Source of the DNA: Adlercreutzia hattorii
GTDB lineage: Bacteria; Actinomycetota; Coriobacteriia; Coriobacteriales; Eggerthellaceae
Direction: 5' to 3'
NCBI RefSeq assembly: GCF_011405655.1
Contig: NZ_AP022829.1
Coordinates: 1,597,001 to 1,661,000 of the forward strand
DNA length: 64,000 bases
The position numbers and the translations under genes were made by a program. Below, one piece after another: positions 25,995 through 34,444 of this stretch. How positions within the stretch are numbered: the first letter of the stretch is position 1; the number at the start of each line of letters is the position of its first letter. The notes beneath the pieces were generated by a model. That model was not told the origin of the DNA. It searched no databases and worked only from the letters and a program-made list of their open reading frames with translations.

Positions 25995-27494
25995 CTACAC
26001 GAGGCCGGGCGTCGTCACCAACAGGAAAATGGACAAACAGGCCGCCGCGACGATGATGACAAGCACCACCTTGTCCAGCGTGCTCTGGAAGTACTTCTCG
26101 CCGCGTTCCCTCTTGCCCCAGATGTACATGAGGATGCCGGGCACGTACAGCAGGCACATGAGGATGACGCCGAGCACGCCCGCGGCCCAGGACAGAAACA
26201 GGCTGTAGACGACGCCCACGCAGCCCAGGATGCGCCACATCAGGATGGGGCCGTTAAGACGCCCCTTGAACGCGTCGGGCTCTTTGAAGGCCACCTTCGC
26301 GAAGTAGGCGGCCGAAAGCAGGTACGGCAGAAGGATCATACCGGCGGACAGCGTGTAGAAGAACTGGTAGGTGGAATCGGTGAACAGCCAGGTGATGAGG
26401 AACAGCTCGATGATGATGTTCGTCACGACGAGGGTAACCACTGGCGCGCCCTTGTCGTTGGTCTTGGCGAAAGCCCTAATGAACACGCCCTCCTCGGCGG
26501 CCTCGAAGGGTGACTCGCTGGCGAGCACCGTATAGCCGAGCATGGCGCCGATGAGCGAGAGCGACACGGCAAAGTTGATCAGCACGGCGCCCCAATCGCC
26601 CACGGCGGCTTGCATCACGTAGGCCAGAGCCGGATTCTCGAGGTTGGCCAGCTCGGAGAGCGGCATGACGCCCATGGAGAGGATGGACACCGTCAGGTAC
26701 AGCGTCAGCACGCAGATGAACGCGATGATGGTGGCCTTGCCCACGTCCTTCGCCTTCTTGGCGCGGCCGGAGATGGCCACCGCACCCTCGATGCCGATGA
26801 ACACCCAGATGGTCACCATCATGGCCGTCTGTACCTGGTCGACGAAGGCCAGCGACGGGTCGGCTCCAGTGGTGAGGTTCGCGATGAAGATGTCGGGCTT
26901 GAAGGCGCCGATGAAGATGATGGCGATGATGCCGATGAGCAGGGGCACGAACTTCGAGATGGTGATGACCGCGTTGATGAGGGTCACCTCGCTGATGCCG
27001 CGGCTCACAAGGAAGGCGTAGAACCAGATGATGCAGGAGGCTCCGATGACGGCGTAGAGGTTCGTGCCGTTACCGAAGATCGGGAAGAAGTACGACAGCG
27101 CGCCGAACAGAAGCGCCGAGAAGCTGACCGTGCACAGAAGGGCCGAGATCCAGTAGCCCCAGGCACTGTTGAAGCCGAGGAAGTCGCCGAATCCCGTGGC
27201 GGCGTAGGTGTAGATGCCGCCCTTGAGGTCGGGCTTAACCCGGGAAAGCGCGAAGAACGTCATAACGAGGCAGAACACGCCGATGGCGGAAATGCCCCAG
27301 GCGGTCAGTATCGCCCAGCCGCTCGCGCCGCCGGCCGCCGCATCGCCCGACAGCGAGAACACGCCCGCGCCGACGATGAGCGTGATGACCGTGGTGACCA
27401 TTCGAAACAAGCCGATGCCCTTGGGGTTGGTCACCCCGTCCGCTGCGGCCTGGGGCACGGCGGCCCCTGTCGTGGTCATTGATTCTGTGCTCAT
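25995..27494 (-). CDS. APC-superfamily amino acid permease/antiporter
   Basis: A 499-residue protein with about 12-14 membrane segments. Family features are the TM1 loop LIVGAGVFSLSGDAA, GGIYTYA in TM3 and VFIGIEGAVAISGRAK in TM6, which resemble the basic amino acid/polyamine antiporter group (ArcD-like). Specificity is inferred only. ATG at 27494 after GAGGAG at a long spacing of 11; ATG at 27479 is an alternative. Monocistronic. It directly borders the accessory island. Confidence 0.85.
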   Translation of the reverse strand: MSTESMTTTGAAVPQAAADGVTNPKGIGLFRMVTTVITLIVGAGVFSLSGDAAAGGASGWAILTAWGISAIGVFCLVMTFFALSRVKPDLKGGIYTYAATGFGDFLGFNSAWGYWISALLCTVSFSALLFGALSYFFPIFGNGTNLYAVIGASCIIWFYAFLVSRGISEVTLINAVITISKFVPLLIGIIAIIFIGAFKPDIFIANLTTGADPSLAFVDQVQTAMMVTIWVFIGIEGAVAISGRAKKAKDVGKATIIAFICVLTLYLTVSILSMGVMPLSELANLENPALAYVMQAAVGDWGAVLINFAVSLSLIGAMLGYTVLASESPFEAAEEGVFIRAFAKTNDKGAPVVTLVVTNIIIELFLITWLFTDSTYQFFYTLSAGMILLPYLLSAAYFAKVAFKEPDAFKGRLNGPILMWRILGCVGVVYSLFLSWAAGVLGVILMCLLYVPGILMYIWGKRERGEKYFQSTLDKVVLVIIVAAACLSIFLLVTTPGLV

Positions 27495-27673
27495 GGAAAG
27501 ACCAACTCCTCGGTAGGGGAACATTGAGAACAATGATACCCCAGGTGAGGTTATTTCGCTTCCACAACTTTTCCACGTAAGGGCGGCGTTACAAAATCAG
27601 AGCGGCATAACATGCCATCTGCGAAAACTTCAGCTCATATTGCTCGAAACTCAAACTCAAACGTAGCAGATGC

Positions 27674-28099
27674 TCACCAATTAGAAATAGCTGCAACTCG
27701 CACTTCGCGAGGACTAACCAATAAAAGGCGTTTCTCGACTCGATCAATCGCGTGTTTTGCAGTATTTTGCTTAATTAGTCCTTCATTTGCAGTAGCCGCA
27801 AACTCGACCTTGTCTTTGCCCATTTTTGTCACAACCAACGCGATGTTCATGTTGGCCACACCAGCACCAACTACTGCCACGCATTCCATCCCATCATCCG
27901 ACTGTTCAATGACCTTGCCGACTTCCATGAATGCCTCGGCAAGCTTCTTCGGCGTACAGTCCTTCACCTCAACGGTTGCATAAGCACTGCCGTCAATCAG
28001 CTTCCTCACGGACTTGTCGGTAACGACGAACCCGTAGTCAGCCCCGTAGCGCCTCAAGGCCTCCTCGAGCTTTTGTGCTACTTCTTTCTCGTCACTCAT
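27674..28099 (-). CDS. Hypothetical protein, partner of the 645-residue protein upstream
   Basis: A 141-residue soluble, mixed alpha/beta protein with no motif I recognise. It begins with a charged helix (EVAQKLEEALRRYG), has an alternating hydrophobic centre (ECVAVVGAGVANMNIALVV) and a basic tail. Its start overlaps the end of the upstream gene by 8 bases, so the two are surely co-translated. Possible roles as an immunity or adaptor partner are speculation from this coupling. The surrounding DNA is less GC-rich than the core genome, pointing to transfer. Confidence 0.75.
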   Translation of the reverse strand: MSDEKEVAQKLEEALRRYGADYGFVVTDKSVRKLIDGSAYATVEVKDCTPKKLAEAFMEVGKVIEQSDDGMECVAVVGAGVANMNIALVVTKMGKDKVEFAATANEGLIKQNTAKHAIDRVEKRLLLVSPREVRVAAISNW

Positions 28100-30029
28100 C
28101 TAAACCACTACCTCCCAACTCCAAAGCGATGTCCATGACCACGGAATCGATGCTTTCCTCCATTAAATCCTCGCTGGGCGCCGCGATGCGCGGGCGTATT
28201 TTTACCTGCTCGTTCGCAAGTGGCTCGATGATACCTCTCGCATGCCAGTACCTGTCCTTGCTTGAATGCATCTTCTTCAATGCCTTCTCGTTAATCTTAG
28301 CCACAAGCTTGTCCGATATCTTCTCGGCCTCGTCTTGGCTCAGGAGGTACTCCTCGCTTACGTCCCGGAAGGCTGCCTGTATCAACCTGATCATCTTGTC
28401 GGTATCTGAGTCGAAGAACTTGCCGGTAGCCTTGTCGATTAGCACGCCAAGCCCACCGCCAGCAACCAGAGAACCCACAAGACCGCCCACGACCGTGCCG
28501 ACGCCGGGAAGCACCATCGTGCCCACGGTCGATCCGCCGAGCCATCCCGCCGTGCCCCCGACAACCGTTGTGGTCGTCTTGGCGAAGTTGACCGCCAGCT
28601 GCGCCCCGGAGATCCTGCCGAGCACTATGTCCTTGACGTCGAACGACGTCAGCACCGCGGTGGTCACCACAGCCGTGATAGCGTTGCCCTTCAGCAATTT
28701 GGCGGCGCTGTTGATCGCAGCCCCTCCCGTAAGCGTGGTTCCGCTCCTGAAGGCGTTCGCCAGCGCTGCGTAGGCCTTGGGGCTCAGGGTCTTCGCCAAC
28801 GCCTGAAAGCTGGGGGTCATCGCGCCGCTGATGCTGGACTTAGCGATCTGGCTTGCCAGGACGGTCGTGACCAGCGTCGTACCGCCTATCTTGATTCCGC
28901 TGAATGCAGCGTTCTTCAATGCAACGGTCGGCTCCTCGCCATTCCATATGCTAATGGCCAAGGTTATGGAGGCGCTTACCCCGAAGGCCGAGAGGGAGAT
29001 GACGGCTCCGGACTTCGCGTCATAGATGATGGAGTCCAGGTTCCCGGCTTTGGCGATGTTCTTCGCTTGCTGGTAGGTGAAGTGTCCCGGCTGCACTATC
29101 TCCTTGGCCTTCTCAGGATCCGTGACTCCTTTGACCTGCCCGTTTTCGATTTTGCCGGCCATCGCCTTGCGCGCATCTTCGATGGTGTCGGAGGCCACCT
29201 CGATGACCATGGGCTTTCCGTTGCTGTCGAAGTAGCGGAACTCGCCGCTGCCGCCGTTCTCGAAGCAGCCGTTTATGCTCGTTCTTCCGGTCGCGCAGTA
29301 CTTCGATTGGATTAGAACCTTTGCCCCGTCCGGCTGGTGGATCGCCCTATCAGGGCCGTTCTTGACGTTGTTATCGCCCTCGATGGTAGCTTTCTTGCCA
29401 TGCAGGCGGTCCTCTAGATTGTTTGCTCTTTCCGCGGCGAATCCGTGGCCTTGCCGAGCATGGAACCTCTCTTCGTCGTACACCTTATTGACGACGCCCC
29501 TGCTCCCGACGGTCAGGCCGCCTACTTCTATTCCAGCAGCTTCGTTCTCGTACTCCAGATTGACTCGGCTGTATTCCTCTGCCGCGGCACGGTTGATCCT
29601 CTTGATACTTTTGATGAGCTTTGTGATGGCCTCGCAGTCTACGACGTCGCATTTCCACAAATAATCGGCGTTGCTATCGAGCTCAAATTTTACCCCGTAG
29701 TCGAATCCTTCCTCAGTTCTCAATATCGCGATTCTACTAACCTCGTCGTACCAGACCTTCTGAGGTTTATTGCGACCGCCGTAGAAATAAGCTTTTGTGT
29801 CGCACACTAGAATGCCCGCAGTCGCATCGTGCCTCTTTGATACGTCGACGAGACCGATAACTCTATTCCAATCAAGCTGTGCCGCATATTGGTTGAGCCG
29901 ATTAGCAATCATCTTTCTTGTGCCATCATTTAAAGTTCGAGTAAATATACAGGACATGCCATCGTTAGCCCGACAGCATCTCCCAAACTCCTGCTGTATT
30001 TCTATGAAAGTAGTCATAAGTTGTTGCAT
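28092..30029 (-). CDS. Hypothetical protein with PD-(Q)XK nuclease-like motif and glycine-zipper membrane segment
   Basis: The 645-residue protein has three visible parts. Residues about 55-145 are beta-rich and resemble bacterial PH-like domains (GLVDVSKRHDATAGILVCD, then KVWYDEVSRIAIL). Residues about 185-330 contain GHGFAAE (Glu200), NGPDR (Asp227) and IQSKY (Gln241, Lys243), in the order and spacing of a PD-(D/E/Q)XK nuclease core. The C-terminal half is hydrophobic and glycine-rich, with a glycine-zipper run at about 491-529 as in membrane-inserting proteins, then a charged tail. I recall related uncharacterised proteins in diverse bacteria. The nuclease reading is inference. The ATG at 30029 has GAGG very close; ATG at 30017 is an alternative. 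It forms a two-gene unit with the 141-residue gene. Confidence 0.7.
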   Translation of the reverse strand: MQQLMTTFIEIQQEFGRCCRANDGMSCIFTRTLNDGTRKMIANRLNQYAAQLDWNRVIGLVDVSKRHDATAGILVCDTKAYFYGGRNKPQKVWYDEVSRIAILRTEEGFDYGVKFELDSNADYLWKCDVVDCEAITKLIKSIKRINRAAAEEYSRVNLEYENEAAGIEVGGLTVGSRGVVNKVYDEERFHARQGHGFAAERANNLEDRLHGKKATIEGDNNVKNGPDRAIHQPDGAKVLIQSKYCATGRTSINGCFENGGSGEFRYFDSNGKPMVIEVASDTIEDARKAMAGKIENGQVKGVTDPEKAKEIVQPGHFTYQQAKNIAKAGNLDSIIYDAKSGAVISLSAFGVSASITLAISIWNGEEPTVALKNAAFSGIKIGGTTLVTTVLASQIAKSSISGAMTPSFQALAKTLSPKAYAALANAFRSGTTLTGGAAINSAAKLLKGNAITAVVTTAVLTSFDVKDIVLGRISGAQLAVNFAKTTTTVVGGTAGWLGGSTVGTMVLPGVGTVVGGLVGSLVAGGGLGVLIDKATGKFFDSDTDKMIRLIQAAFRDVSEEYLLSQDEAEKISDKLVAKINEKALKKMHSSKDRYWHARGIIEPLANEQVKIRPRIAAPSEDLMEESIDSVVMDIALELGGSGLDE

Positions 30030-30278
30030 GCCTCAGTGAATTGCCACGTCGCCTTCGCTTTCTCCGGTTGGTTCATATGGCAACCTTAATCTCTGATCAG
30101 GAATGCCATTCATTGCTAGTCATTACAGGAGCGTTGCCTTCCAGCTACCTGAGACAAAGACAAAAACCAGGATAACCCACCTATAGACTCACAGCACTCG
30201 ATACAAGGTCTGACCATGCGGTCAGCAATCGGTGCGCAGTACGTCCACCGCAGCTTTAAAACATTACGTTCCTGCAAC

Positions 30279-30383
30279 CTAACGACTTAACTGGATTTGC
30301 GGTCGGCCGCATATTGATCCCTTCGATACCACCTCAACCACCTCGCGCAAGGTCTTGCCATCTTTGACTTCCTGCAGACCCAT
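30279..30383 (-). CDS. Small ORF, 34 residues, possibly a remnant
   Basis: ATG at 30383 preceded by AAGGTGAATAA encodes a short peptide beginning MGLQEVKDGKTLREVVEVV. It follows a decayed small gene by 4 bases. It may be the first part of a lost gene. Between this ORF and the 28092-30029 gene (30030-30278) I see no gene; only a short CTGACC/GGTCAG stem near 30210. Confidence 0.3.
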   Translation of the reverse strand: MGLQEVKDGKTLREVVEVVSKGSICGRPQIQLSR

Positions 30384-30387
30384 TTAT

Positions 30388-30640
30388 TCACCTTCCAGCG
30401 GAGCTATATCTTTCTAAATCATATTGGTTAAATTCATGCACGGTATCGCGTAGCAGCATGCGCGCGTGCTCAGCGATGGCATTGTAGATGCTTCAATCTC
30501 CAACAACTAGAAAACTCTCAGCTTGCCCTCACAAGAAACATACGTGGCAATAGCCTTCACGCCTGAGGTATCTTTGATTTTTCGAGCTTCATACCCGAAG
30601 CGTCACGGACTGTTGCGAGCGTTAAACTATAAGGTCGCAT
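30388..30640 (-). pseudogene. Decayed small gene, about 80 codons
   Basis: ATG at 30640 after AAAGGAAG begins MRPYSLTLATVRDASGM and stops at 30557. Reading continues sensibly in another frame (VKAIATYVSCEGKLRVF), then stops again, and a final stretch resembles a protein end (AEHARMLLRDTVHEFNQYD, ending at 30388). At least one frameshift and one stop interrupt it. Family unknown; the size suits a toxin-antitoxin or phage accessory gene. Confidence 0.4.
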
Positions 30641-30762
30641 CTTTTGCTTCCTTTCGTCAGCACAATTTATCACAAACTTTAGTAAAACTAAAAAAATAAT
30701 TGAGATTTTTTTAATTGGTAGTAAAATGCTCATAGAAATTGAGTTTCATTGAAGGAGGCGAT

Positions 30763-31434
30763 ATGGGTATCCCTGAAAACATTGATGCATTACTGGTCAA
30801 ATACGACATTAATCAAGACCATCTGGCACGAATAGCAGACGTGACACCCGGAGCGGTTACTGGCTGGCGCAAGGGCTCCACCCCCCGCAAAGATGCCGTG
30901 CGCAACATATGCGATTACTTCAATCTGAGCGAGGACGATATTCTCTCCGAGAATTACGGCCTAGCGGCAAAAGAGCATGGAGACTTTCCAGGAATATCTA
31001 ACGCCCGTCCCGCCGTAGGCATGGCCATGGGCCTAGCGCCGCGCCTGGGGAAGGTGCACGCGGGGGTTCTCGCCCAGCCGGACGTGTGCGACGAGGCCAC
31101 CATGGTGAGCATCCCGCAGTTTCTCGTGGACGAGGATCCCGACTGCTTCGTGGTGTCCAGCGAAGGCGATTGCATGGACAAGGTGCTCTCCGTCGGCAGC
31201 GACCTGGTAGTGTCGCGGAAGAAGCAGCCGCGCGACAACTCGATCGTGATGGCGTCGGTGGACGGCTGCGACTACATCGTGCGCCGGCTGCGCATGACGG
31301 CCAACACCATGATCCTCTCGCCGGAGAGCCACAACCCCGACCACGAGGACATCATCATAAGGCGGGACAGCGAGCACAGCCTAGAGATCCCGGGCGTGAT
31401 CACCTGGTATCAGGCCCCGAGGGAGATGGAGTAG
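30763..31434 (+). CDS. XRE/S24 LexA-like repressor with variant catalytic dyad
   Basis: The 223-residue protein has an N-terminal helix-turn-helix (about residues 15-60, HLARIADVTPGAVTGWRKG) and a C-terminal S24 peptidase-like fold. A candidate self-cleavage site Ala100-Gly101 (KVHAGVL) is present. The catalytic serine of GDSM is Cys137 (EGDCMDKV) and the lysine of VKRL is Arg174 (IVRRL), so RecA-style autocleavage may be lost, slowed or redox/pH dependent. GAAGGAGG precedes the ATG. It heads a tight operon with a DUF3800 gene 12 bases on and another gene beyond, suggesting it controls them. The promoter lies in the AT-rich 30660-30760 stretch. Confidence 0.85.
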   Translation: MGIPENIDALLVKYDINQDHLARIADVTPGAVTGWRKGSTPRKDAVRNICDYFNLSEDDILSENYGLAAKEHGDFPGISNARPAVGMAMGLAPRLGKVHAGVLAQPDVCDEATMVSIPQFLVDEDPDCFVVSSEGDCMDKVLSVGSDLVVSRKKQPRDNSIVMASVDGCDYIVRRLRMTANTMILSPESHNPDHEDIIIRRDSEHSLEIPGVITWYQAPREME

Positions 31435-31446
31435 GAGGACCCAGTA

Positions 31447-32214
31447 ATGGAGCACAGTTCGAACTACATTTCAGCGCAAAATTTTAACAGGATTTTCTCA
31501 GGATCTGAATTCAACGTCTACTGCGACGAGAGCTGTCATTTGGAGCACAGCTCATCCAATGCCATGGCACTTGGGGCCATATGGTGCCCGAAACAGAAAA
31601 CGCGGGAGATCAACCAAAGATTGATCGAGATCAAGAAGAAGCATCGCATAAAGCCAGAGGCCGAGGTGAAGTGGACGAAGGCCGCCCCGGGAAACCGATC
31701 TCTGTACGTCGATTTTCTCGACTACTTCTTCGACGACGACGATCTTCATTTCCGTGGCGTGGTCATACCGGACAAGAAGAAGCTCGATCACGCGCGCTAC
31801 GGTCAGACTCACGATGAGTGGTATTACAAGATGTACTTCGTGCTTCTGAAGGCGATATTCCGCCGAGATGCGAGGTACTACGTCTACATAGACATCAAGG
31901 ACACTCATTCGAGCGAGAACGCCCGTCGGCTCGAGGATGTGTGCGCCGCGAACGCCCACGACTTCAGCCATGAGATAGTGAGGCGCGTCCAGCCAATCCG
32001 TTCCGACGAGGTGCAGATCATGCAACTCGTTGATATCCTGACAGGAGCCATCTGCTACCGCCACAACAACCCCTATATCACCCCTCAGATGAACTCGACG
32101 AAGGTCGAATTGGTGAACAGGACCATCACTCGCTCGCAGATAAATCTCACGAACACCACGCTGTCGAGCGAGGACAAGCTGAACCTGCTGGTGTGGGAGC
32201 ATGATTGGAGGTAG
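31447..32214 (+). CDS. DUF3800 protein
   Basis: A 255-residue protein of the DUF3800 family, usually described as having an RNase H-like fold and found in phages and mobile DNA. Conserved acidic positions are visible: YCDES (Asp27, Glu28), KW (75-76), YIDIKD (Asp149, Asp152) and QLVDILTGA (Asp196). If the acidic set is catalytic, a metal-dependent nuclease is plausible; this is family-level inference. It lies between the S24 repressor (12-base gap) and the next gene (3-base gap). Confidence 0.8.
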   Translation: MEHSSNYISAQNFNRIFSGSEFNVYCDESCHLEHSSSNAMALGAIWCPKQKTREINQRLIEIKKKHRIKPEAEVKWTKAAPGNRSLYVDFLDYFFDDDDLHFRGVVIPDKKKLDHARYGQTHDEWYYKMYFVLLKAIFRRDARYYVYIDIKDTHSSENARRLEDVCAANAHDFSHEIVRRVQPIRSDEVQIMQLVDILTGAICYRHNNPYITPQMNSTKVELVNRTITRSQINLTNTTLSSEDKLNLLVWEHDWR

Positions 32215-32217
32215 ACC

Positions 32218-32784
32218 GTGGTTGAGGACTGGTGCTGGCTGCCTGATCTTCTCCCATGCGATGACCTTGCGCAATGGGAGGCTTACGAGGATCATCTGTA
32301 CGAGATATTCGAGCGCGACTTCCTGCTGACGAAACCCACCTTCGAGGGACTTCCCGTCAACACGCGAAGACATCCAATGGAGCACGGTCGCGAAGAGGCG
32401 TTCTGGCACATAACGTGCTGCGACTACGGAAAGGACGGGGAGAGGCAACCCGACATGAACCGGTGCGAGCGCATTAGATGGGCGCGAGCGTTCATCGAGA
32501 ATTGCGGCTGCAATCGCCCCGAATGCACGGAGTGCGAAGGAATGCTCGTATGGTCGACTCCTTACAAGGGGCACAGCCGGGTGAAGATGCTCCTTGAGGA
32601 CGAGCAGTATCTCGTCGTGCTAGAGAGGAGGGAGAAATACTGCCTCCTGATAACAGCGTTTTACGTCGATCAGGAACACAGGCTTGAGAAACTGAGGAAG
32701 GAATTTGACAAAGTGTCCAGAGAAGCAGGAAGCGCCCCGAGAGGGACGCAACCAGATACTCCTTCTACACTTACGAGTCGGTAG
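32218..32784 (+). CDS. Small protein with Cys cluster and BECR/RelE-like C-terminal signature
   Basis: A 188-residue protein starting with GTG three bases after the DUF3800 stop, with GGAGGT upstream. Residues about 60-105 hold many Cys (WHITCCDYGKDG, CGCNRPECTECEG), possibly binding zinc. The C-terminal part (YLVVLERREKYCLLITAFY, then HRLEKLRKEF) resembles uncharacterised phage and mobile-element proteins that have been grouped with Barnase-EndoU-ColicinE5-RelE-like RNases. That likeness is from memory and unverified. The tail looks disordered. Tight coupling to DUF3800 suggests the two act together. Confidence 0.65.
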   Translation: MVEDWCWLPDLLPCDDLAQWEAYEDHLYEIFERDFLLTKPTFEGLPVNTRRHPMEHGREEAFWHITCCDYGKDGERQPDMNRCERIRWARAFIENCGCNRPECTECEGMLVWSTPYKGHSRVKMLLEDEQYLVVLERREKYCLLITAFYVDQEHRLEKLRKEFDKVSREAGSAPRGTQPDTPSTLTSR

Positions 32785-33079
32785 ATGAGCTATCTCGATT
32801 ATAAGTTTGCAGCGCTGCAAAAGTAAAGGCACAAGATATTGAACGTTGATTTCGAATTTTGCAGAAAACCTTCCATAAATGAAGGATGAAACACAAGATG
32901 TTGCGGTTGAAGGATAGTGAACCTTTTCGCAACAAAACACTGTCTCGACAGTGCAACGGCAGTGCTCCGGCACTGTTCCGGCAGTGGGCGAGCAGTATTA
33001 AGAGAAGGAGCCCCGCTTTGATCTTGGCGGACTGGCGGGGCTCGCAGAAGAAATACCATCCTACGAATAGGAAGGCAAG
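32785..33079. other. Non-coding gap with several short stems upstream of the integrase
   Basis: No gene is visible. It is AT-richer at its start and holds a GTTGCG/CGCAAC stem (about 32900-32935), repeated CAGTG units (CACTGTCTCGACAGTG and two more CGGCAGTG/CGGCACTG words, about 32937-32988), and GAGCCCCGC/GCGGGGCTC arms (about 33010-33042). These could be operators or a terminator for the preceding operon. Confidence 0.4.
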
Positions 33080-34271
33080 GTGAATTGTACCATGGCCAAG
33101 GTAAAGGTTCGCGGCAAAGGCTCCGTGTACAAGATGGAGCGCGGCAAGTCGCGCGGCAAGTGCCGCAAGTGGCAGCTTCGCGCGGAGATCGATGGCGAGT
33201 TCGAGGGCGACGAGGGCTATGTCAAGACGAGGGTGTTCCACGGGACGTACTCCGAGGCGCAGGACGCCAAGGACGAGTTCGTGGCCGCCATCGAGCGCGG
33301 CGAGGTTAGGCGCGAGAGGGGGATGCTCTTCCCCGCCTACGCGGAGGCGTGGCTGGCCGAGCGGGCGGCGAAGGTCGCCTACGACACGTTGCAGAAGAAC
33401 AGGTGCCACATCGTGTGCGCCAATATGCACCTCTCTAAGGCCCGGATCGAGGAAATTCGGCCTGGGCGCACCTGGATGCGATGTACAAGGCCCTCAGAAA
33501 CGGCGAGAGCCCTTCAGGCAGGCCCTTGTCCGGAACCTACGTGCGCGACATATCCGTGACGCTCCACAGGATGTTCCGGGATGCGGTGAAGGGGGCGACG
33601 CCGACTCCAACCCGTGCGAGTACGCCGAGCCGCCGGCCATAGACACGGAGCAGCGCACCCCCCCTCCCGTCGAGGGCATCAGGGCGCTCGTCGATTCCCT
33701 CGATCCGAGGAAGCCCATGGAGTTCGCGCTTCGGGCGGCGGTCGGGTCGGGCATGAGGCGCGGCGAAATCGTGGGCCTAGACGTGCGGGACATAGACTTC
33801 GAGGCCGGAGAGATACACGTGGTGCACGGCACCGATAGCCTGGGGCGGCAGAAGGACACGAAGACCGCCGCGTCCAAGAGGGCGCTCCCCATGCCCGCGA
33901 GCCTCAAGGCGGACTTGAGGGAGCGCATTGCCGCCATAGAGGAGATGTTCGCGGAGACGCGGAAGGAGACGGGCAGCCCGTGGCCCGTCCTCGGAGACGA
34001 CACGCCGCTCATGTGCAACGAGCTGGGCGAGAGGATGCGGCCCCATTCCGTCACCCGGTGGTGGGAGTGTCACAGGGACGGCTACGGCTGCCAGGGCATG
34101 ACGCTGCACGATATGAGGCACAGCTACCTCACGGCCATGGCCCGCAAGAAGACCGACCCGAAGGTTCTCCAAGTGCTCGCGGGCCACGCGAAGTACTCCA
34201 CAACCATGGACATTTACACCCATGTGGACATGGCCCAGAAGCACGAGGCGGTGGAGGCGATGGACTGGTAA
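33080..34271 (+). pseudogene. Tyrosine recombinase/integrase with two frame breaks
   Basis: The protein can be pieced together from three frames. The N-terminal arm-binding and core-binding part (AKVKVRGKGSVYKMERGK to about SKARIEEI) is in the first. AHLDAMYKALRNGES through MFRDAVK is in the second. The catalytic domain is in the third, with GMRRGEIVGL (first Arg), HDMRHSYLTAMA (His-x-x-Arg), LAGHAKYSTTMDIYTH (His and nucleophile Tyr). Each change, near 33455-33466 and 33588-33600 (a GGGGG run), looks like one missing base. Either the gene is dead or the assembly has indels. It lies just beyond the 3' end of tRNA-Val, the usual attachment site. Start by GTG at 33080 (AGGAAGG upstream) or ATG at 33092. 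Confidence 0.85.
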
Positions 34272-34333
34272 TGAAGTCACGGGGGCGGATTTTGAGTCCA
34301 TTTTGCTTCCATTTGGACCCGGGAAAAGAAAAA

Positions 34334-34369: not shown

Positions 34370-34444
34370 TGGTGCGCGATACAAGATTTGAACTTGTGAC
34401 CCCCACCGTGTCAAGGTGGTGCTCTCCCCCTGAGCTAATCGCGC
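34370..34444 (-). tRNA. tRNA-Val (anticodon GAC)
   Basis: A complete 75-base cloverleaf with acceptor GCGCGAT/ATCGCGC, anticodon stem CCACC/GGTGG with loop TTGACAC, T loop TTCAAAT and encoded CCA. Its 3' end faces the broken integrase, making it the probable attB of the island. No clear copy of its 3' end was found at the other side of the island. Confidence 0.95.

What the first reader, a model, noticed from the sequence alone, without database searches (positions are those of the whole stretch)
27674..30029. Two-gene unit: PD-(Q)XK-like protein with glycine-zipper membrane domain plus coupled partner
The 645-residue protein combines a PH-like N-terminal region, a motif set Glu200, Asp227, Gln241-x-Lys243 in PD-(D/E/Q)XK order, and a glycine-zipper segment at about 491-529. 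A 141-residue gene overlaps its end by 8 bases. A nuclease linked to membrane insertion with a co-translated partner would suit a phage-defence effector or a toxin with its immunity protein. It sits in lower-GC DNA in a mobile island. Seen: motifs, overlap, composition. Inferred: nuclease and defence roles.
Basis: partly seen in the sequence, partly recalled or inferred. Interest (0 to 1): 0.75.

Follow-up and report, generated by a model that had tools for sequence, protein, structure and literature searches.

The report
Membrane-tethered nuclease-like family related to YeeR
A small mobile island carries a protein that looks like a DNA-cutting enzyme fastened to the cell membrane, together with a small partner gene; it belongs to a widespread family of unknown function that includes E. 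coli YeeR, and it may be a defence against viruses that infect bacteria.

Summary
ORF 28092-30029(-) encodes 645 aa and overlaps a 141-aa gene by 8 bp. Glu200, Asp227, Gln241 and Lys243 are invariant in 84 of 84 aligned sequences, and in 10 of 10 gathered without motif patterns. AlphaFold2 gives a confident alpha-beta-beta-beta-alpha-beta order with these residues where PD-(D/E)XK nucleases carry them. The N-terminus is a PH domain; residues 490-531 are a glycine zipper. No fold or profile search confirmed the nuclease fold independently.

The protein belongs to a large, sporadic, uncharacterised family that includes full-length E. coli YeeR (a match in 2554 of 5426 genomes; truncated in K-12). 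N-termini vary; the nuclease-plus-zipper part is constant. The partner, where present, lies directly downstream, but in only 17 of 87 distinct full-length loci. In one clade it is fused to a membrane protein. The island also carries candidate defence pair PDC-M04; two relatives lie beside PDC-M09 genes.

Best reading: a membrane-tethered nuclease that works like SNIPE but is not a SNIPE member, cutting invading DNA, with swappable sensors. Activity and defence are inferred. A toxin-antidote pair is the main rival.

The parts
28092..30029 (-). 645-aa YeeR-like protein: PH-like N-terminus, PD-QxK nuclease-like domain, hydrophobic helices, glycine zipper, helical C-terminus
29595..29948 (-). PH-like domain, residues 28-145
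   Evidence: VIA-align 3dcx Z 8.6 and 3hsa Z 8.2; PADLOC BnzA N-terminal match, E 7.3e-6
29040..29462 (-). nuclease-like domain, residues 190-330, with Glu200, Asp227, Gln241, Lys243 (also invariant Tyr244, Glu277)
   Evidence: invariant residues; mean pLDDT 90-98 in each ten-residue block from 191 to 340; order H194-209 E213-216 E228-231 E237-243 H248-253 E275-278
28944..29039 (-). hydrophobic helix, residues 331-362
   Evidence: helix 331-362 in the model; Kyte-Doolittle peak 1.95 at 343-361; such a segment in 63 of 84
28437..28562 (-). glycine zipper, residues 490-531
   Evidence: GxxxGxxxG at 491, 495, 511, peak hydropathy 2.05; pLDDT under 50 at 464-538, so its structure is not predicted
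27674..28099 (-). 141-aa partner (P0002), start overlapping the end of the 645-aa gene by 8 bp
30739..31434 (+). LexA/CI-like repressor: HTH plus S24 peptidase, divergent from the unit
   Evidence: Peptidase_S24 1.4e-13, HTH_26 4.4e-6; phrog_4 repressor 7.4e-19
31447..32214 (+). DUF3800 protein = PADLOC candidate PDC-M04A
   Evidence: Pfam DUF3800 1.8e-13; PDC-M04A 6e-85
32218..32784 (+). PADLOC candidate PDC-M04B
   Evidence: PDC-M04B 3e-65; phrog_16230 'replication protein' 4.3e-21
33080..34271 (+). tyrosine integrase, reading frame broken (pieces lie in three frames)
   Evidence: Phage_integrase 2.3e-20; three-frame translation
27600..34330 (.). inserted island, approximate ends, between a transporter-like gene (25995-27533, label by eye) and tRNA-Val (34370-34444)
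   Evidence: relatives with the flanks close together; GC 0.554 against 0.645/0.649; tRNA

Best explanation
The 645-aa protein is a membrane-tethered nuclease of the PD-(D/E)XK type with a Gln-x-Lys active site. It belongs to a widespread, uncharacterised family that includes full-length E. coli YeeR. Its constant part (nuclease plus hydrophobic helices and glycine zipper) is the effector; its N-terminus, here a PH domain, is a swappable targeting or sensing part. It most likely protects the host, or the element that carries it, by cutting incoming DNA at the membrane, in the way SNIPE does with another nuclease. The 141-aa partner is a cytoplasmic regulator or adaptor, probably made from the same message, that sets when the nuclease acts. 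In one clade it is fused to a membrane protein with a further domain beyond the membrane helix, which suggests coupling to an envelope sensor. Shown: genes, residue invariance, secondary-structure order (predicted), PH fold (predicted), varying N-termini, linkage and fusion of the partner, island. Inferred: DNase activity, membrane insertion, defence, the partner's role. The odds given here and to the rivals overlap and do not add up to one.
For: Glu200, Asp227, Gln241, Lys243 invariant in 84 of 84 and 10 of 10. Confident alpha-beta-beta-beta-alpha-beta order with Asp227 just before strand 2 and Gln-x-Lys in strand 3. PH domain. Mean share of the commonest residue 0.62-0.69 from the nuclease through the zipper, 0.20 in the PH region, whose columns only 46% of rows fill. 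N-terminal length class changes at least 12 times on the tree (fewer than in 300 shuffles, minimum 21, so it follows the tree yet is swapped repeatedly). PADLOC candidate pair PDC-M04 in the same island. On a viral contig, PDC-M09A (2.4e-120) and PDC-M09B (1.2e-211) lie directly upstream of a relative (L106), and PDC-M09A is the third gene downstream of another (L072). Relatives themselves resemble PDC-M09B weakly: 20 of 84, best 5.5e-11. A phage record carries a relative between an endolysin and a DNA invertase gene, with small genes between. Sporadic: 9 of 100 genomes including its own, none of the 8 same-genus relatives. Partner same strand and directly downstream in 22 of 22 entries that have it; fused to a membrane protein in L072 and L078. 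SNIPE homologues show the same plan of conserved nuclease and variable N-termini with TM or PH domains (PMC13190303, section 9).
Against: No Pfam or NCBIfam family over its cut-off. Foldseek found no PDB match at E <= 0.001, and most of the 50 rows shown are PH-, PTB- or FERM-type proteins by title. Of the 50 VIA rows only 1y88 lies within the nuclease part, Z 6.3, rmsd 7.4. hhalign against nine Mrr_cat domains gave 0.4%, no better than 30 column shuffles, whose best was 9%. Three divergent relatives (L007-L009) lack the Glu200-Lys243 segment altogether. No enrichment statistic for defence neighbours: the PADLOC scans of neighbours have no control set, and the Pfam scans list many ordinary genes. 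PDC-M09A was sought in 45 genomes or records of relatives: 8 had a match, only 2 of these strong and beside the family gene. PDC systems are themselves untested candidates. The zipper is below pLDDT 50. E. coli copies sit with Ag43 and IrmA, linked in print to pathogenic strains, which could point to another role.
Confidence: 0.5

Rival explanations
1. Abortive-infection or toxin-antidote unit acting on the host cell: the nuclease cuts host DNA (or the glycine zipper opens the membrane) and the 141-aa partner is its antidote, released on infection.
For: Overlapping co-directional genes. One order-level genome (G051) keeps a partner gene without any nuclease gene found, as orphan antidotes do. 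Divergent S24-type repressor in the island. In 100 related genomes three of the four with a partner also have the large gene.
Against: Most family members examined lack this partner: 70 of 87 distinct full-length loci with at least 500 bp downstream. The partner stays while the N-terminus changes between the window and its sister clade, so those two are not locked together.
Confidence: 0.25
2. Interbacterial toxin with immunity protein, the zipper carrying the nuclease across the target membrane as in the T6SS DNase effector Tde1 (PMC10240207, abstract seen).
For: Nuclease-like plus glycine-zipper combination and adjacent small gene; a precedent exists in Tde1.
Against: No secretion family among the Pfam matches of P0001 at E <= 1; none in the 25 of 63 Pfam families shown for the 84 sequences. 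E. coli members have a long hydrophobic N-terminus that looks multi-spanning by eye (sequence), unlike a secreted cargo. Partner not constant.
Confidence: 0.08
3. Phage- or element-borne function other than host defence, for example superinfection exclusion or competition between mobile elements, using the same nuclease.
For: Relatives on a phage record, IMG/VR contigs, plasmid records and islands; in the phage record it lies between endolysin and DNA invertase genes.
Against: Not separable from host defence by sequence alone.
Confidence: 0.12
4. Non-nuclease membrane protein in which the motif residues are structural.
For: No independent fold or profile match; relatives L007-L009 persist without the motif segment.
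Against: Four catalytic-type residues invariant in order at the expected secondary-structure positions.
Confidence: 0.12

Closest known systems
E. coli YeeR (CP4-44 prophage; flu-yeeR-irmA cluster)
   Same: Homologous nuclease-like domain, hydrophobic part and zipper region; motif residues shared. In print the K-12 gene is called truncated and irmA is said to share a transcript with flu and yeeR (PMC6480617, passages), although in strain 042 irmA has its own promoter (PMC9431211, passages).
   Different: E. coli form has a long hydrophobic N-terminus instead of the PH domain, and IrmA downstream instead of P0002. The K-12-type protein, 510 aa, ends inside the nuclease-like domain after the motif residues and lacks the zipper. 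I saw no function proposed in the passages read.
SNIPE (membrane-bound anti-phage nuclease)
   Same: Conserved nuclease with variable N-termini that carry TM or PH domains (PMC13190303, abstract and section 9).
   Different: SNIPE uses GIY-YIG plus DUF4041; neither was matched in P0001. Here PD-QxK-like residues, a zipper and a separate partner.
PADLOC candidate PDC-M09
   Same: Relatives show weak colinear similarity to PDC-M09B and two loci lie beside PDC-M09 genes.
   Different: Window protein has no PDC-M09B match at E <= 1 and no PDC-M09A neighbour among the island proteins scanned; PDC-M09 is itself an untested candidate.
Bunzi BnzA
   Same: N-terminal PH-like part resembles BnzA positions 27-94 of 544; 28 of 84 sequences match, best 4e-26.
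   Different: Only the N-terminal part matches in the six proteins whose ranges I saw; the remaining profile does not.
LeoB / LeoBC (PADLOC models)
   Same: Zipper region and following helices resemble LeoB positions 446-534; 43 of 84 sequences, best 7.1e-9.
   Different: No match outside that part where ranges were shown; composition may contribute.
Mrr-type endonucleases
   Same: Asp then Gln-x-Lys motif pattern (QxK in six of nine Mrr_cat domains); 1y88 is Mrr-like from recall.
   Different: Profile comparison not significant.

Membership tests
PD-(D/E)XK nuclease superfamily | alpha-beta-beta-beta-alpha-beta core with acidic residue at strand 2 and (D/E/Q)xK in strand 3 | tested here: met
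   Order and positions in the AlphaFold2 model, pLDDT 90-98 per block from 191 to 340; residues invariant 84 of 84. A predicted secondary-structure order, not a superposition
PD-(D/E)XK nuclease superfamily | structural similarity to a solved member | tested here: inconclusive
   Full-length search dominated by the PH domain; 1y88 Z 6.3, rmsd 7.4, 153 aligned.
PD-(D/E)XK nuclease superfamily | profile similarity to a known member family (Mrr_cat) | tested here: inconclusive
   hhalign probability 0.4%, within 30 column shuffles; no positive control run
PD-(D/E)XK nuclease superfamily | metal-dependent nucleic-acid cleavage | not testable with these tools
   needs protein
YeeR family | homology over the nuclease-like and zipper parts | tested here: met
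   tblastn 32.9% over residues 193-613, E 3e-43; same DNA annotated yeeR in C600 and NEB5-alpha; alignment A1
SNIPE | GIY-YIG nuclease domain and DUF4041 | tested here: not met
   No such Pfam family at E <= 1 in P0001
SNIPE | membrane-directing variable N-terminus | tested here: met
   PH domain here; N-terminal length class changes at least 12 times on the tree. Membrane binding itself untested
Bunzi | full-length BnzA plus BnzB | tested here: not met
   Only BnzA positions 27-94 of 544 match; partner has no PADLOC hit
PDC-M09 | PDC-M09A with PDC-M09B | tested here: not met
   P0001 and P0002 match neither at E <= 1
Toxin with immunity protein | constant presence of the immunity gene | tested here: not met
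   17 of 87 distinct full-length loci; 22 of 110 entries
Toxin with immunity protein | secretion or delivery domain | tested here: inconclusive
   None in P0001; only 25 of 63 families shown for the 84 sequences
PDC-M04 (neighbouring pair 31447-32784) | PDC-M04A and PDC-M04B adjacent | tested here: met
   6e-85 and 3e-65, three bases apart

The most novel reading that the evidence does not exclude
Full-length YeeR and its relatives form a bacterium-wide class of membrane-tethered PD-QxK nucleases that cut foreign DNA as it enters, gated by interchangeable sensors. The 141-aa partner is a new adaptor domain that, by itself or fused to a transmembrane protein with an extracytoplasmic domain, tells the nuclease of envelope disturbance. 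Laboratory E. coli K-12 carries a truncated copy.
Probability: 0.28. Interest if true: 0.82.

Novelty: new variant of a known kind. Interest (0 to 1): 0.6.

Why it matters
Membrane-bound nucleases that tell phage DNA from self by where it enters are a recently described defence strategy (SNIPE; PMC13190303, abstract and section 9 seen). This family would be a second, different nuclease on the same plan, with relatives in records titled as Coriobacteria, Bacillota, Pseudomonadota, Cyanobacteria and others. It would also give a testable function to YeeR, an island gene with a match in 2554 of 5426 complete E. coli genomes (short and truncated matches included) and truncated in K-12-type strains. 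That truncation may be one reason why laboratory work has not picked it up (my guess).

Tried and rejected
Fold searches with the full-length model: the PDB lists were filled mostly by PH-type proteins and the viral list gave nothing at E <= 0.001. Partner fold: best VIA rows are the Roco COR domain (3dpt, Z 9.4, rmsd 2.5, 94 aligned), AP2 appendage and similar platform folds, read as a common arrangement, not a relationship. PDB sequence searches with P0001, A2 and A3 gave nothing meaningful. An Mrr relative as query did not retrieve 1y88, so its Mrr label is recalled. hhalign to Mrr_cat negative. First viral scan with P0001 alone: no relative. No convincing att repeat at the island ends. Of the eight same-genus relatives, G005, G007 and G008 have the flank rearranged (in G007 and G008 the tRNA-Val lies close by but in the other orientation) and G003 and G006 have incomplete contigs at this site, so only three show the close-flank arrangement. 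Searches for the source of the PDC names gave no primary paper; a B. cereus survey calls PDC-x unpublished candidate systems (PMC11811056, passages). Literature searches for YeeR; for a membrane-anchored nuclease in defence. A review on anti-phage nuclease specificity (PMC12904381, passages) lists Zorya, Kiwa and SNIPE under membrane localisation.

Rows dropped: A2 used 83 of 88 loci L023-L110; L045, L069, L086, L108 and L109 were left out as fragments, odd or repeats. The 87 distinct loci leave out 13 repeats or further E. coli copies, fragments under 445 aa and loci with under 500 bp downstream. Neighbour scans used 273 of 329 candidate neighbour ORFs. The genome-contig scan kept 80 of 206 relatives. 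One search ended with an index error after printing what was needed. Most PADLOC families of neighbours were not shown (25 of 146 and 25 of 157 were). The tree is a quick one without bootstrap.
Full report
Observation. The two genes are ORFs at the stated places: 645 aa at 28092-30029(-) and 141 aa at 27674-28099(-), overlapping by 8 bases, with a GGGAGG ribosome-binding-like stretch before the second start. An in-frame stop lies just before the first start. GC is 0.556 and 0.500 against 0.645-0.649 in the flanks.

Island. In three same-genus relatives (G001, G002, G004) of eight searched, the transporter-like gene at 25995-27533 and tRNA-Val at 34370 are about 130-160 bp apart; here 6.8 kb lie between. 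The other five are rearranged or incomplete at this place. The island holds the two-gene unit, a divergent S24-type repressor, a DUF3800 gene and its neighbour that match PADLOC's candidate pair PDC-M04 (6e-85 and 3e-65), and a tyrosine integrase whose pieces lie in three frames. No convincing flanking repeat was found.

Family. Neither gene reaches a Pfam or NCBIfam cut-off. Relatives of the large protein were found in 9 of 100 genomes including its own, none of the 8 same-genus relatives; in 10 plasmid-collection records (some of chromosome size) and 1 phage record; in 206 places of genome contigs, a lower bound, of which 80 were kept; and in 8 IMG/VR contigs. Record titles name Coriobacteria, Lachnospiraceae, Bacillus, Shewanella, Desulfovibrio, cyanobacteria, Aliarcobacter and Parachlamydiales among others. 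The E. coli relative is the full-length form of YeeR. DNA of its core has a match in 2554 of 5426 complete genomes, with at least 80% covered in 2125. In C600 and NEB5-alpha the matching gene is annotated yeeR and only the first 300 bases of the query match. That shorter YeeR, 510 aa in C600, keeps the motif residues and ends before the zipper. Published passages call the K-12 gene truncated (PMC6480617); the main text of PMC9431211 does not contain the word nuclease.

Nuclease-like domain. Glu200, Asp227, Gln241 and Lys243 are invariant in 10 of 10 and 84 of 84 sequences, P0001 included. The second set is partly biased, because one search pattern fixed Asp227 and another Glu200. The AlphaFold2 model built on 84 sequences has mean pLDDT of 90-98 in each ten-residue block from 191 to 340, with helix 194-209 (Glu200), strand 213-216, strand 228-231 (just after Asp227), strand 237-243 (Gln241, Lys243), helix 248-253 and strand 275-278. 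That is the textbook order of the PD-(D/E)XK core (recalled). Independent confirmation is lacking. The full-length Foldseek and VIA lists are filled mostly by PH-type proteins; the one VIA row within the nuclease part is 1y88 with Z 6.3 and rmsd 7.4 over model residues 195-393. hhalign with nine Mrr_cat domains gives 0.4%, no better than shuffles, though it pairs the Asp and Gln-x-Lys motifs. Three divergent order-level relatives (L007-L009) have the earlier and later parts but not the Glu200-Lys243 segment.

Rest of the protein. Residues 28-144 are a PH domain of the bacterial kind (3dcx Z 8.6, rmsd 2.8) and resemble the start of BnzA. After the nuclease come hydrophobic helices and the zipper at 490-531: at least two GxxxG in 84 of 84, a TM-like stretch there in 78 of 84. 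The zipper itself is not modelled with confidence. The mean share of the commonest residue, gaps counted against it, is 0.68-0.69 in the nuclease, 0.62-0.65 from 331 to 531 and 0.20 in the PH region, which 46% of rows fill. N-terminal length class (35 long, 49 short) changes at least 12 times on a quick tree; 300 shuffles need 21 or more. The window and L023 carry the long N-terminus while their sister clade L047/L054/L056 does not. So the effector part is constant and the front is swapped.

Partner. P0002 is predicted with pLDDT 90 and pTM 0.85 as a small alpha/beta domain without a telling relative. A six-frame search finds it in 22 of 110 locus entries (18 after removing four repeats), same strand and directly downstream in every one. 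Among 87 distinct full-length loci with at least 500 bp downstream, 17 have it and 70 do not. On the tree it needs 6 changes, shuffled minimum 12 of 300. Because these loci were fetched through the large gene, they cannot show the partner elsewhere. The separate test is 100 related genomes, where it occurs in 4; three also have the large gene, one (G051) does not. In L072 and L078 it is fused to one TM-like helix and a domain beyond it; in L093 the two are separate neighbours; in L080 the membrane protein stands without it. So it is a linked but optional component.

Surroundings of relatives. WYL-type regulators recur near the gene, mostly upstream: a neighbour cluster that includes the L011 WYL protein reaches 14 loci, and WYL models match neighbours. 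On viral contig L106, PDC-M09A and PDC-M09B directly precede a relative; PDC-M09A is the third gene after another in L072. PDC-M09A was sought in 45 genomes or records of relatives; 8 had a match, the other six on other contigs, of unknown distance or weak. One E. coli copy lies about 4.5 kb from type I restriction genes, with a GTPase and Ag43 gene between. A phage carries a relative between endolysin and DNA invertase genes. These scans had no background control, and many neighbours are ordinary genes.

Mechanism. I favour a membrane-tethered nuclease that cuts entering DNA (0.5). SNIPE shows that such a strategy exists and that its homologues swap TM and PH N-termini around a fixed nuclease (PMC13190303, section 9). 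The window protein lacks SNIPE's domains, so it works like SNIPE at most. The partner is read as an adaptor or regulator because it is optional and, in one clade, wired to a membrane protein. A toxin-antidote reading (0.25) is kept alive by the overlap and by the orphan partner in G051. A delivered toxin (0.08) has a precedent in the zipper-bearing DNase Tde1 (PMC10240207, abstract) but lacks delivery marks here.

Verdict. The nuclease call is likely (about 0.75 in my judgement), membrane tethering likely, defence plausible and untested. The novelty lies in the family: a widespread uncharacterised nuclease-like membrane protein with a name (YeeR) but no function that I found (searches, passages).

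Noticed in passing
window 31447-32784: DUF3800 gene and neighbour match PADLOC's unpublished candidate pair PDC-M04 (6e-85, 3e-65), so the island carries two candidate defence units.
   Followed up: partly
window 33080-34271: Tyrosine integrase of the island is broken across three reading frames, so the island may no longer move by itself.
   Followed up: partly
L007, L008, L009: Order-level relatives keep the earlier and later parts but lack the whole Glu200-Lys243 segment: nuclease-less members of the family.
   Followed up: partly
L072:4458-6062, L078:9521-10660, L093:6336-7112, L080:4769-5800: A protein with one TM-like helix and a conserved further domain beside the nuclease gene; fused to the partner domain in the first two.
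   Followed up: partly
L085:9434-10345 and L087:9455-10378: Directly coupled downstream gene looks, by eye, like an HNH-type protein, an alternative partner in two distant bacteria.
   Followed up: no
L106:1144-5993: Viral contig with PDC-M09A, PDC-M09B and a YeeR-like gene in a row.
   Followed up: partly
window 30030-30738: Low-GC (0.453) stretch of 709 bp between the unit and the repressor without a clear gene; may hold remnants or regulatory DNA.
   Followed up: no
L162 (G051 C12): Partner gene without a nuclease gene found in that genome, between an unassigned 382-aa gene and a lipoprotein-like gene (labels by eye).
   Followed up: partly
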